A DNA stretch of 64,000 nucleotides from NCBI RefSeq assembly GCF_030268205.1, contig NZ_BSQF01000001.1:788649-852648 (forward strand), in the 5' to 3' direction. The position numbers and the translations under genes were made by a program. The DNA is from Allomuricauda sp. NBRC 101325. Lineage in GTDB: Bacteria > Bacteroidota > Bacteroidia > Flavobacteriales > Flavobacteriaceae. The notes below the pieces were generated by a model that was not told where the DNA came from, did no database searches, and worked only from the letters and a program-made list of their open reading frames with translations. Below are positions 487 to 4,226 of the stretch, piece after piece (within the stretch, counting starts at the first letter, position 1; each line of letters begins with the position of its first letter).

Positions 487-512
487 CCAAGATTCCTGCA
501 ATCATATAAAAG

Positions 513-541
513 AAAACCCTCCAAATTGGAGGGTTTTTTTA
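513..541 (+). terminator. Rho-independent terminator
   Basis: The arms AAAACCCTCCAA and TTGGAGGGTTTT pair as a 12-bp stem with a 2-base centre, followed by a T-run. It closes the transcript of the dehydrogenase small subunit. Confidence 0.85.
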
Positions 542-824: not shown

Positions 825-858
825 AAAAAAAGCCATGAAATAGTAATTATTCCATGGC
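825..858 (-). terminator. Rho-independent terminator on the minus strand
   Basis: Read on the minus strand, GCCATGGAATA and TATTTCATGGC form an 11-bp stem with one G-U pair and a 5-base loop, followed at once by seven T. No minus-strand gene of normal size lies upstream of it. It therefore ends a transcript made of the structured segment at 884-1065, possibly with the small reading frame at 1093-1212. Confidence 0.75.
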
Positions 859-1066
859 CTATAATGTATGACGAAATACAAAGTTGTATTACCAAAGCGT
901 ACGGCCTCCCCGATAAGTTAATCATTGTCTTTCCTCAACTTAGGTAGTTCCCCCGAAACCTAATATCGAATCCAGACCATAACTGTCTCGAAGATTTTAT
1001 TTTGCAAGCGGTTTAACAATCAGATGATTGGTTGCTGTGGCCGTACAATTTATTTGGTAATACAAT
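825..1066 (-). ncRNA. Candidate structured non-coding RNA, about 240 nt
   Basis: Two segments, 884-906 and 1039-1065, are complementary over 13 bp (TTGTATTACCAAA with TTTGGTAATACAA) and a further 8 bp (GTACGGCC with GGCCGTAC), separated by a small asymmetric internal loop. They close a domain of about 130 nt holding further hairpins: TTAGGT/ACCTAA around 948-971, AGAC/GTCT around 976-990, and CAATC/GATTG around 1017-1030. On the minus strand this is followed by an intrinsic terminator, which suggests that strand is transcribed. No reading frame explains the pairing. The long closing stem recalls 6S-type RNAs, but no 6S, tmRNA, SRP or RNase P signature could be confirmed. A short inverted-repeat element (MITE) is the main alternative. 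Confidence 0.5.
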
Positions 1067-1092: not shown

Positions 1093-1212
1093 TCATTTTT
1101 TTACCAACACCCTTTCCATAGGCGCCTCAAACTTATCGCTTTTGGCTTGGGATACGGCAGCAATAACCAACGCTACAACTAAAATCAAAAAAAGCAAAAC
1201 GCATTTTCTCAT
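1093..1212 (-). CDS. Small exported peptide, 39 aa, unknown
   Basis: ATG at 1212 opens 39 codons ending in TGA. After M-R-K-C comes a hydrophobic stretch of about 16 residues (V-L-L-F-L-I-L-V-V-A-L-V-I-A-A-V), then S-Q-A-K and a short charged tail ending V-K-K. This is a signal peptide or single membrane anchor followed by about 20 residues. A possible promoter, TTG-N18-TTTCTTTG, lies at 1227-1255. The gene points away from the LytTR/histidine kinase operon that begins at 1512. No family is recognised. Chance occurrence is possible at this length. Confidence 0.4.
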   Translation of the reverse strand: MRKCVLLFLILVVALVIAAVSQAKSDKFEAPMERVLVKK

Positions 1213-1456
1213 GGCTGGTTAATTAACAAAGAAACAATCCTTTATTTTTTGACAATCCGAATATAGACAACAAATAGATGGTGGTTTTTAGGGTATGTAT
1301 AAACTGTACTTTTTTATGTATAGTTGGTGTTCGGTTTTTGTATAAAGTTTGATTTTCCTTCCAAAACCATAGGAAAAAATATGTCCCAATGCCTTAAAAA
1401 CATATGGTTTTGCATTTTTTACCAGTTATACGTGTTAAATATCCATTAACACATAA

Positions 1457-1511: not shown

Positions 1512-2246
1512 ATGTTAGAAGCAGTAATAGTTGACGATGAGATCAAAGCACTACAGAGCTTAAGTTGGGAATTGACCAATTTAAGCGATGAAGTGGAAAT
1601 TGTAGCGTCCTTTACCGATGCGCGTGAAGCTTTGGAATATTTGGAGCACAATACTCCTGACTGTCTGTTCCTTGACATTGAGATGCCGGCAATGGATGGT
1701 TTTCAATTCATTAAAAACCTGAAAAACAAGAACTTTCCCGTTGTTATCACAACTGCTTATAACCAATATGCGCTTCAAGCCTTAAAGAACGAAGCCATCG
1801 ATTACCTATTAAAACCTATTGACACTGACGACCTTGAGGTAACTATTACCAAAATAAAAAAATATAACGCTAAAAGTCTTACTGTTGAGCGTCTTGAAAA
1901 AATTTTGCTTAACTTCAATTCAGAAACGCACAGTAAAAAAATAACCATTAATACCGATGGGAAACTGGTGTTTTTGAACAGTGATGACATTTTGTATGCG
2001 GAGTCCGACGGCAATTATAGCACCATCTTTTTAAAGGACGGTCAAAAAATATTGTTGACCAAAAAACTAAAGGAAGTCAATGCACTATTGCCTGAATCCA
2101 GCTTTTTTAGGATTCACAATTCATACATCATCAACCTGAATAAAATAAAGGAATTTCTTAAAACTGACGGCTACGTTGTTTTGGAATCCAACGATAAAAT
2201 ACCTGTTTCACGTCAAAAGAAATCCGATTTTTTGGATATGTTTTAA
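1512..2246 (+). CDS. LytTR-family response regulator
   Basis: This 244-residue protein is a standard LytR/AlgR-type two-component regulator. Residues 1-120 are a receiver domain with the acidic pair D8/D9, phospho-acceptor D55 (in F-L-D-I-E-M-P), T80/T81 and K101 (in L-L-K-P-I-D). Residues about 140-240 are a LytTR DNA-binding domain containing D-I-L-Y-A-E-S-D-G-N-Y and F-F-R-I-H-N-S-Y-I-I-N. It is followed 15 bases later by a sensor kinase of the type that partners such regulators, so the two should form one phosphorelay. Targets are unknown; LytTR proteins usually bind pairs of direct repeats. Confidence 0.93.
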   Translation: MLEAVIVDDEIKALQSLSWELTNLSDEVEIVASFTDAREALEYLEHNTPDCLFLDIEMPAMDGFQFIKNLKNKNFPVVITTAYNQYALQALKNEAIDYLLKPIDTDDLEVTITKIKKYNAKSLTVERLEKILLNFNSETHSKKITINTDGKLVFLNSDDILYAESDGNYSTIFLKDGQKILLTKKLKEVNALLPESSFFRIHNSYIINLNKIKEFLKTDGYVVLESNDKIPVSRQKKSDFLDMF

Positions 2247-2261
2247 ACTGCCACCAATCCC

Positions 2262-4226
2262 GTGCCTATTGTAAAGTTCAAACAAGTCGAAAACCTACAT
2301 CGAGTACCCAGAACTACTCTGGTCTTTCTATTATTGTTCATTTACCAACTTTTACCGGCACAAGAAATACCCGAAGATTTTAAGGAAATTGCAGAAACTC
2401 TTGTTGAGCTAAGATCACCAAGCTATGAGGCTTTGGATAAAGATCTGGATGCCTTCAAAAATGACACTACCCTAATTCGATATTTCGACAAAATTGCAGA
2501 CCGATCCCATTATTTAGAGGGTAGAGCTTATGCCCTAAATCTTTTGGGCAGAAGCTATCGCAACATATCGCAATATGAAAAGTCAGTAGCTTTGCACCAA
2601 GAGGCCCTTTCAATATCGGAGGAGGCCAAAAGCTTGGATTTTAAAATATTAAGCTTAAACATGTTGGGAGTTGCCTATCGCAGAATGGACGCAATTAAAA
2701 CAGCTTTGGATTACCATCAACAGGCCTTGGAACTCGCTGAAGATGTCGAAAAACCATCCCATCACATTAAACGAAGCATCAATGTATCCCATAATGGAAT
2801 CGGGAACCTTTACCTTACCTTGGAGCAATACGATCAAGCCATAGCCCAGTTTCAAGAGGCATTGAATTTGGAACAGGAACTGGTCAATAAATTGGGATTG
2901 GCCATCAATTATCAGAACATTGGTTATTGTTTGGAGCAAAAAGGCGATTTGGACGGCGCTTTGGAAAACTATAGGAAATCCTTGGCTTACAATGAGGACA
3001 TTGATTCCGATACTGGAAGGATCATCTGCAAAAACAGTTTGGCTCAAATCTATCTGAAACAGGACATGTCCTATTCAGCTTTAACCTTATTAAATCCTTT
3101 AAAAGAAGAATCAAAAAAAGCTAAAGATCTATTTATCGCTTCTTATGTATATATAAATTCTGGGTGGGCCAATACCCAATTGGGCAATTACGATCAGGCC
3201 TATGAGGAAATTCAAGAAGGGCTAGAAATGGCCAAGTCCCGAAACATGCCCAGCAATATTCTTTATGCCTACCAAAAACTGTCCGATCTCGCCAATGCCA
3301 GAGGAAATTATAAAGAGGCTTATGAATATTATAAAATGGCCGATGAGTACGATAAAGAAATTTTAAGTGCCACCAACCTTAGGTACATCAACGATAACAT
3401 CGAAAAGTACCAAGACGATAAAAAGACCAACCAGATTGCTGTTTTGGCCGCTGAAAACGAATTGGTAAGATTGCGTTTAAAAAAGAACGAGACCACTTTT
3501 TTGGTGAGTGCCTTGATTGTGGGATTGATTTCATCCATACTTTACATTCTGTATCGCCAATACCAAAGCAAAAATGAGAAGCGTGTACTTACCTTGGAGC
3601 AAAAGATGTTGCGCAGCCAAATGAATCCCCATTTTTTGTTCAATTCCTTGAACTCCATCAAGCTGTATATTATCAACAACGAGCAGAAAAATGCGGTACA
3701 TTACCTCAACAAGTTTTCCAAATTGGTACGGAAAATCTTGGAAGCCTCCTCGCAACGGGAAATATCATTGGCAGAAGAACTGGAAACAGTAGAACTCTAC
3801 ATGAACATTGAAAATATTCGATTCTCCAATGAAATCAATTTTAAAATCAATGTGGATGATGATATCAATATAGACAACATCAAGATTCCATCATTGACCC
3901 TTCAACCTTTTTTGGAAAACTCACTATGGCATGGATTATCCCCAAAAGATGGCGAAAAGAGCATCCAGATCAATGTGCGAAACAAAAACAATGGCCACGT
4001 AAGCATCGAAGTGATCGATAATGGGGTCGGGAGGACCATGGCCGAAGTGAACAAGGAAAACCGTGTGCTCAAAAAGAAATCATTGGGAATACATATCACC
4101 AAAGAACGTTTGGCCAATTTCTCCAGGGACTACCAAAACAAGTTCGATGTGGACATTATGGACCTATTTAACGAAAACGGCGATCCGAACGGCACCAAGG
4201 TTATTTTGGATATTCCTACGATTTAG
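2262..4226 (+). CDS. TPR-repeat sensor histidine kinase (LytS/YpdA-type)
   Basis: The 654-residue protein starts at a GTG 15 bases after the regulator; no in-frame ATG precedes the signal peptide (about residues 1-34, ending L-L-P-A-Q). Residues about 85-365 hold tetratricopeptide repeats in the periplasm, followed by a coiled segment and one membrane helix at about 412-431. The cytoplasmic part is a His_kinase domain with phospho-acceptor H457 in M-N-P-H-F-L-F-N, then an ATPase domain with N553 (N box) and D586-N-G-V-G. The architecture suggests that a periplasmic protein or peptide ligand is sensed through the TPRs (inference). Its 3' end overlaps the convergent DUF3109 gene by 11 bases. 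Confidence 0.92.
   Translation: MPIVKFKQVENLHRVPRTTLVFLLLFIYQLLPAQEIPEDFKEIAETLVELRSPSYEALDKDLDAFKNDTTLIRYFDKIADRSHYLEGRAYALNLLGRSYRNISQYEKSVALHQEALSISEEAKSLDFKILSLNMLGVAYRRMDAIKTALDYHQQALELAEDVEKPSHHIKRSINVSHNGIGNLYLTLEQYDQAIAQFQEALNLEQELVNKLGLAINYQNIGYCLEQKGDLDGALENYRKSLAYNEDIDSDTGRIICKNSLAQIYLKQDMSYSALTLLNPLKEESKKAKDLFIASYVYINSGWANTQLGNYDQAYEEIQEGLEMAKSRNMPSNILYAYQKLSDLANARGNYKEAYEYYKMADEYDKEILSATNLRYINDNIEKYQDDKKTNQIAVLAAENELVRLRLKKNETTFLVSALIVGLISSILYILYRQYQSKNEKRVLTLEQKMLRSQMNPHFLFNSLNSIKLYIINNEQKNAVHYLNKFSKLVRKILEASSQREISLAEELETVELYMNIENIRFSNEINFKINVDDDINIDNIKIPSLTLQPFLENSLWHGLSPKDGEKSIQINVRNKNNGHVSIEVIDNGVGRTMAEVNKENRVLKKKSLGIHITKERLANFSRDYQNKFDVDIMDLFNENGDPNGTKVILDIPTI

What the first reader, a model, noticed from the sequence alone, without database searches (positions are those of the whole stretch)
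825..1066. Unannotated structured RNA candidate, ended by a strong terminator
Two segments 132 bases apart pair over 13 and 8 bp, enclose several hairpins, and are followed on the minus strand by an 11-bp stem and seven T. No reading frame explains this. The closing-stem-plus-internal-hairpins layout could be a 6S-like or other housekeeping RNA of flavobacteria, or a new family. It may also be a short inverted-repeat element.
Basis: partly seen in the sequence, partly recalled or inferred. Interest (0 to 1): 0.68.

Follow-up and report, generated by a model that had tools for sequence, protein, structure and literature searches.

The report
Conserved regulatory RNA beside two-component system
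This bacterium and many relatives carry an uncatalogued folded RNA next to a tiny membrane protein and a signalling gene pair that probably switches both on, much like a well-known gene switch of Staphylococcus but in an unrelated group of bacteria.

Summary
In detail: 825-1065 (minus strand) is a structured RNA ended by a terminator. It is single-copy, has no credible Rfam match and is not 6S (6S-Flavo lies on another contig). It is in 69 of 71 genomes of the genus and, by an exact 18-mer, in 40 of 299 family genomes (34 of 236 genera), one copy each. Outside the family nothing exceeds the control. In 73 relatives 29 of 37 base pairs show compensatory change (slid controls: at most 21). The apical hairpin UAGGUUUC-GGGG-GAACUACCUA is nearly invariant.

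The neighbours suggest a function. A LytTR response regulator and TPR histidine kinase are transcribed away from the RNA (regulator found in 118 of 119 loci with enough flank). Between regulator and RNA lie tandem LytTR-type repeats at a 21-bp period, a promoter box and a membrane micro-ORF under purifying selection.

Best reading: the two-component system switches on a micro-ORF/RNA transcript, and the RNA regulates other genes through its exposed oligo-G hairpin. It works like agr-RNAIII but is not a member of that family. Structure, conservation and gene order are shown; transcription, regulation and targets are inferred.

The parts
825..1065 (-). structured RNA, from the 5' arm of P1 to the terminator
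   Evidence: fold z -4.85; found in 66 of 71 genus genomes; covariation in relatives
1053..1065 (-). P1, 5' arm (pairs with 884-896)
   Evidence: helix 1
884..896 (-). P1, 3' arm
1039..1046 (-). P2, 5' arm GTACGGCC (pairs with 899-906)
   Evidence: helix 2: 8 of 9 pairs with changes on both sides
899..906 (-). P2, 3' arm GGCCGTAC
1004..1035 (-). hairpin GCAACCAATC...GATTG...TTGC of the short form
   Evidence: GCAA/TTGC kept in the genus
941..962 (-). apical hairpin TAGGTTTCGGGGGAACTACCTA with GGGG loop, nearly invariant
   Evidence: 30 of 30 genus loci fetched by whole-RNA search; variants
825..860 (-). intrinsic terminator, hairpin plus seven T
1093..1212 (-). 39-codon micro-ORF, one hydrophobic segment, starts MRKC
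   Evidence: coding test; pattern-matched ORF between regulator and RNA in 116 of 124 loci
1258..1265 (-). TATATTCG, one base from the flavobacterial -7 consensus TAnnTTTG
   Evidence: consensus from passages of PMC9723704
1296..1328 (-). tandem LytTR-type direct repeats, 21-bp period
1512..2246 (+). response regulator, receiver plus LytTR domain, divergent from the RNA
   Evidence: Pfam; synteny
2262..4226 (+). sensor histidine kinase, TPR repeats plus His_kinase domain
   Evidence: Pfam; synteny

Best explanation
A LytTR-type two-component system binds tandem repeats at 1296-1328 and activates a divergent promoter (box 1258-1265). The transcript, about 430 nt, first encodes a 39-residue membrane peptide and then forms a compact structured RNA closed by P1 and P2 and ended by the terminator at 825. 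The RNA, as such or cut from the transcript, is the main output: its nearly invariant hairpin displays an oligo-G loop that pairs with C-rich targets or is held by a partner protein, so that the two-component system controls genes after transcription. The peptide may have a membrane role of its own, perhaps feedback on the kinase. Shown: RNA structure and conservation, coding of the ORF, gene order, conserved repeats. Inferred: transcription, binding by this regulator, action in trans, targets, role of the peptide.
For: Covariation 0.354 against 0.204 (shuffles) and at most 0.103 (slid) in 73 relatives. Regulator divergent from the RNA in 124 of 124 loci that hold it, found in 115 of 119 loci with 1500 nt or more upstream and in three of the other four with more flank. 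Repeats with 5 or fewer of 24 mismatches in 112 of 116 regions, all at 21 bp, against 2.2% of 2320 mononucleotide shuffles; only one such site in the genome at 3 or fewer mismatches. Repeats centred near -59 of the inferred start, as AgrA repeats near -60. Micro-ORF pN/pS 0.39 in frame, 0.82 and 1.36 out of frame. RNA-bearing regulators form one supported clade (98/91) in the tree.
Against: No RNA-seq, binding or target data. One regulator inside the clade (L190) has neither RNA nor micro-ORF; L087 shows no regulator within 2148 nt. Repeats also stand upstream of regulator orthologs without this RNA (28 of 37 loci at 5 or fewer mismatches, a count that includes two loci with the RNA), so they are older than it. 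The related regions are not independent. Short-form covariation is weak: the +3 slide reaches the same number of two-sided cells, 19. P1/P2 and ORF would also be conserved if the peptide alone mattered.
Confidence: 0.6

Rival explanations
1. The membrane micro-protein is the product that matters; the structured RNA is a 3' UTR that stabilises its mRNA, places it or sets its translation.
For: The micro-ORF is upstream on the same strand and under protein-level selection; no separate promoter was seen between ORF and RNA in the window (by eye).
Against: The distance from ORF to RNA varies from about 20 nt to several hundred, with another gene between them in many loci (44 of 124 loci hold the ~185-aa gene); helices covary and one hairpin is nearly invariant, more than stability needs; in 8 of 124 loci no such ORF was recognised.
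Confidence: 0.2
2. The RNA acts on its own signalling pathway, for example by holding the regulator, the kinase mRNA or an RNA-binding protein, as a local feedback device and not as a regulator of many genes.
For: Strict linkage to the regulator; the only strong repeat site in the genome is here.
Against: No complementarity to the regulator or kinase mRNA was tested; orthologous regulators live without this RNA.
Confidence: 0.12
3. A 6S-like or other known housekeeping RNA, or a MITE or other inverted-repeat element.
For: Closing stem with inner hairpins; palindromic layout.
Against: 6S-Flavo lies elsewhere; no Rfam match; one copy per genome and conserved neighbours.
Confidence: 0.02

Closest known systems
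agr P3 transcript RNAIII of Staphylococcus aureus (PMC4227749, passages)
   Same: LytTR response regulator with its kinase, direct repeats centred near -60, divergent transcripts, a structured effector RNA that carries a small peptide ORF.
   Different: No Rfam similarity; kinase with TPR repeats; other phylum; oligo-G loop where RNAIII has C-rich loops (recalled). AgrB and AgrD were not searched for.
VirSR and VR-RNA of Clostridium perfringens (recalled; search listing only)
   Same: A LytTR-type regulator that turns on a regulatory RNA (recalled).
   Different: No comparison of sequences was made; conserved micro-ORF linkage and divergent order are features found here.
6S-Flavo RF01685 and Flavo-1 RF01705 (PMC2864571, passages)
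   Same: Structured RNAs of Bacteroidetes.
   Different: 6S-Flavo is a separate gene in this genome; neither family matched this RNA.
Rfp18 of Flavobacterium psychrophilum (PMC9723704, passages)
   Same: A conserved flavobacterial sRNA with strong predicted structure, required for normal levels of two metalloprotease mRNAs.
   Different: Its sequence is in a supplement that could not be read, so relation is untested.

Membership tests
agr/RNAIII | LytTR response regulator next to its sensor kinase | tested here: met
   Pfam domains of 1512-2246 and 2262-4226
agr/RNAIII | tandem repeats centred near -60 of a divergent promoter | tested here: met
   repeats 1296-1328, box 1258-1265, inferred start near 1253; the start itself is not measured
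agr/RNAIII | RNA sequence or covariance-model similarity to RNAIII | tested here: not met
   no match at or near threshold in cmscan against Rfam 15; that RNAIII is among its families is recalled
agr/RNAIII | autoinducer genes agrB and agrD | not tested
   no search made
agr/RNAIII | RNA is the effector and also the mRNA of a small peptide | not testable with these tools
   order and coding fit; no transcript data
6S RNA (6S-Flavo, RF01685) | match to the 6S-Flavo model | tested here: not met
   the genome's match is at G000:C2:456684-456793, 95.3 bits, not in the window
MITE / inverted-repeat element | several copies in the genome | tested here: not met
   one copy in the own genome and one match in each of 66 genus genomes
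structured noncoding RNA | compensatory base changes beyond controls | tested here: met
   29 of 37 pairs, 247 cells, 0 of 500 shuffles as high

The most novel reading that the evidence does not exclude
This is a Bacteroidota counterpart of RNAIII, reached independently: a signalling pair whose one strong direct site in the genome drives a micro-protein/RNA unit. The oligo-G hairpin would be the effector module and older than the unit, because regulator orthologs in other Flavobacteriaceae stand upstream of a different, about 110-nt, three-hairpin RNA (type II) that also shows a UGGGGA loop. G-rich loops would suit bacteria that rely little on Shine-Dalgarno pairing (recalled), the mirror image of C-rich loops elsewhere.
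Probability: 0.3. Interest if true: 0.88.

Novelty: new variant of a known kind. Interest (0 to 1): 0.74.

Why it matters
Few regulatory RNAs of Flavobacteriaceae have been worked out. A covariation-backed RNA family tied to one regulator, one operator and one micro-protein makes direct questions testable: what the kinase senses, which genes the RNA controls, and whether an RNAIII-like output arose independently in Gram-negative bacteria.

Tried and rejected
6S or another Rfam family: rejected. cmscan gave no match at gathering score in the window. With lax filters, 22 weak matches in 487-1511; only a plus-strand mir-4003 hit (1050-1111, E 1.1) touches the RNA's 5' edge. In ten relatives one weak match (AbsR28, 26 bits against a cut-off of 50) overlaps the 3' end of the L033 RNA; I take both as chance. 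MITE: rejected. Control of a downstream gene in cis: unlikely, since a terminator follows, and in the window the next gene is convergent while in other loci different genes follow. tRNA or tmRNA: none found in the window.

Covariance model R1 found 8 of 299 family genomes, but only eight candidates per genome were scored; the exact 18-mer found 40 of 299. The 18-mer then served as the key for A2 and A3, so hairpin invariance there is partly by construction. Tests free of that key: 30 of 30 loci fetched by whole-RNA search have it (36 of the 66 matching genomes were not fetched); variants are a U-G closing pair in G005 and G054 and one more loop G in L234/G273.

Rows dropped: A2 has 73 of 84 long-form sequences (90% filter), A3 has 36 of the 41 left by a 92% filter (L070, L080, L097, L113, L120 removed by me as long forms mis-sorted by length). 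Automatic helix finding put about ten loci in a wrong register and none for L157; it served for sorting and for the terminator scan, whose count (91 of 142) may suffer. Two of the five helices were picked on the same alignment. The repeat scan used mononucleotide shuffles and related sequences. The micro-ORF is recognised by a pattern; the one first picked in L039 is a chance match, though one search shows a proper one there. The coding test took only ORFs of exactly 39 codons.

Against the reading: L190 and L087; weak short-form covariation; in the phylum scan three hits outside the family, all with 3 mismatches, against eight outside-family control hits by my count. Type II hairpins are absent from most regulator orthologs: the G-loop hairpin in 9 and TGCTATTAATC in 14 of 37 loci. 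Searches of the paper library for this RNA listed no description of it; most subscription journals are not held, and PMC8632094 held none of six taxon terms.

Full report
WHAT IS THERE. The fold beats all 200 shuffles (z -4.85). The plus strand also folds well (z -4.71). Direction comes from the terminator, the promoter box and wobble pairs: across the helices of 73 relatives, 234 cells are G-U on this strand against 34 A-C.

SPREAD. There is one copy in the own genome. A DNA search finds it in 66 of 71 genomes of the genus. Of the other five, three carry the hairpin with 2-3 mismatches in 22, beside the same regulator and a micro-ORF; the last two are 83% and 92% complete. Among 299 family genomes the exact 18-mer GGTTTCGGGGGAACTACC occurs in 40, once each, in 34 of 236 genera; the reversed pattern never occurs. 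Of the 80 titles shown, most name Flavobacteriaceae (Flagellimonas, Allomuricauda, Maribacter, Robiginitalea, Zobellia, Arenibacter, Eudoraea, Croceivirga, Pricia, Kriegella and others); the rest are Bacteroidia or Bacteroidetes bins, one 'Cytophaga sp.' and one 'Algicola sp.' bin. In 395 genomes of the phylum, six family genomes match with at most one mismatch, and three others match with three mismatches, no more than the reversed control. The nearest named relative is probably Allomuricauda zhangzhouensis: G070 matches at 96%, and its contig has the length of that species' record.

STRUCTURE. On 73 long-form relatives, aligned in fixed windows without structure, RNAalifold recovers P1, P2 and the apical hairpin; 17 of 25 pairs have compensatory changes. 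With two more helices found on the same alignment, 29 of 37 pairs change on both sides and the covariation score is 0.354, against 0.204 (sd 0.006) for shuffles and at most 0.103 for slid partners. P1 and P2, not chosen by that scan, have 6 of 7 and 8 of 9 such pairs. The short form, carried by the window, points the same way more weakly: 11 of 30 pairs, score 0.110 against 0.080 for shuffles and at most 0.051 for slides, while the +3 slide reaches 10 pairs and the same 19 cells. Six apical pairs never vary in either alignment, partly because the 18-mer was the search key. Loci found without that key show limited variation: a U-G closing pair (G005, G054) and one extra loop G (L234).

NEIGHBOURS. 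Divergent from the RNA lies a LytTR response regulator followed by a TPR histidine kinase. The regulator was found in 115 of 119 loci with at least 1500 nt upstream and in three of the other four when more flank was fetched. It is divergent in all 124 loci that hold it; in 116 of these a pattern-matched micro-ORF lies between it and the RNA, 109 of them starting M[KRN][KR]C or alike, about 35-68 codons long in the listings. ORFs of exactly 39 codons are under protein-level selection: pN/pS 0.39 in frame, 0.82 and 1.36 out of frame, 39 loci; one hydrophobic segment starts at residue 4 of the window's ORF. In 44 of 124 loci a gene of about 185 codons without a Pfam family was also detected on the RNA's strand.

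CONTROL REGION. Repeats MCMRTTWATACA recur at exactly 21 bp between regulator and micro-ORF: 112 of 116 regions with 5 or fewer of 24 mismatches, against 2.2% of 2320 shuffles. LytTR sites are described as two repeats of 9-11 nt with 11-13 nt between (PMC4847170, passages). In the window they lie at 1296-1328, with TATATTCG at 1258-1265. With the -12 to -5 position given for flavobacterial boxes (PMC9723704, passages), the start would be near 1253 and the repeats centred near -59; AgrA repeats are centred near -60 of P2 and P3 (PMC4227749, passages). At 3 or fewer mismatches this is the only such site in the genome, so the unit is likely the regulator's main direct target beside, perhaps, its own gene.

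HISTORY. In a tree of 76 regulators the 41 rows with the RNA fall in one supported clade (98/91) that also holds one row without it, L190 (L189, which carries the start of the RNA at a contig end, dropped out because its reading held a stop). Among 37 ortholog loci from genomes without the exact 18-mer, 28 have the repeats, two of them (L189, L234) with the RNA. In nine of the 37 a G-loop hairpin such as AGTGATCGTGGGGATTCACT follows, and in 14 the motif TGCTATTAATC, several with a terminator. In 20 the next ORF of 90 codons or more is, by its start, nrdB (the same ORF in L106 is Ribonuc_red_sm). This 'type II' RNA has no Rfam match. It shares the oligo-G loop; homology is not shown.

MECHANISM. 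Most likely the two-component system activates one transcript that gives a membrane micro-protein and a structured RNA, and the RNA acts on other genes through its exposed G loop. Shown: structure, conservation, coding, order, repeats. Inferred: one transcript, activation, action in trans, targets. It works like agr-RNAIII, or VirSR and VR-RNA (recalled; listing only), but it is not a member: no Rfam similarity, another kinase type, another phylum.

VERDICT. An RNA family not described in the papers that the searches reached, in an RNAIII-like setting. My judgement: conserved structured RNA 0.97, controlled by the LytTR pair 0.85, full mechanism 0.6.

Noticed in passing
L191, L192, L193, L195, L200, L207, L235-L238, just beyond the tandem repeats upstream of the regulator: A different, about 110-nt unit of three hairpins (AGTGATCGTGGGGATTCACT or alike, TTGATTAAATGCTATTAATCAA, terminator) in genera without this RNA; no Rfam match.
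   Followed up: partly
window 1422-1452: A perfect 7-bp inverted repeat GTGTTAA...TTAACAC (1432-1452) beside a third CCAGTTATAC (1422-1431, plus) on the regulator's side; conserved in the genus, maybe autoregulation.
   Followed up: no
window about 735-780: An element like TTTCAACA...GTGTTAAAAAC, seen upstream of nrdB in relatives, is kept downstream of the terminator although the next gene here is Gluconate_2-dh3.
   Followed up: no
L045, L055, L065, L100, L113 between micro-ORF and RNA: A conserved ~185-codon gene with a hydrophobic start and no Pfam family.
   Followed up: partly
window 508-541: A strong hairpin with T runs on both sides, likely a terminator for both strands; source of most weak leader and sRNA matches.
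   Followed up: no
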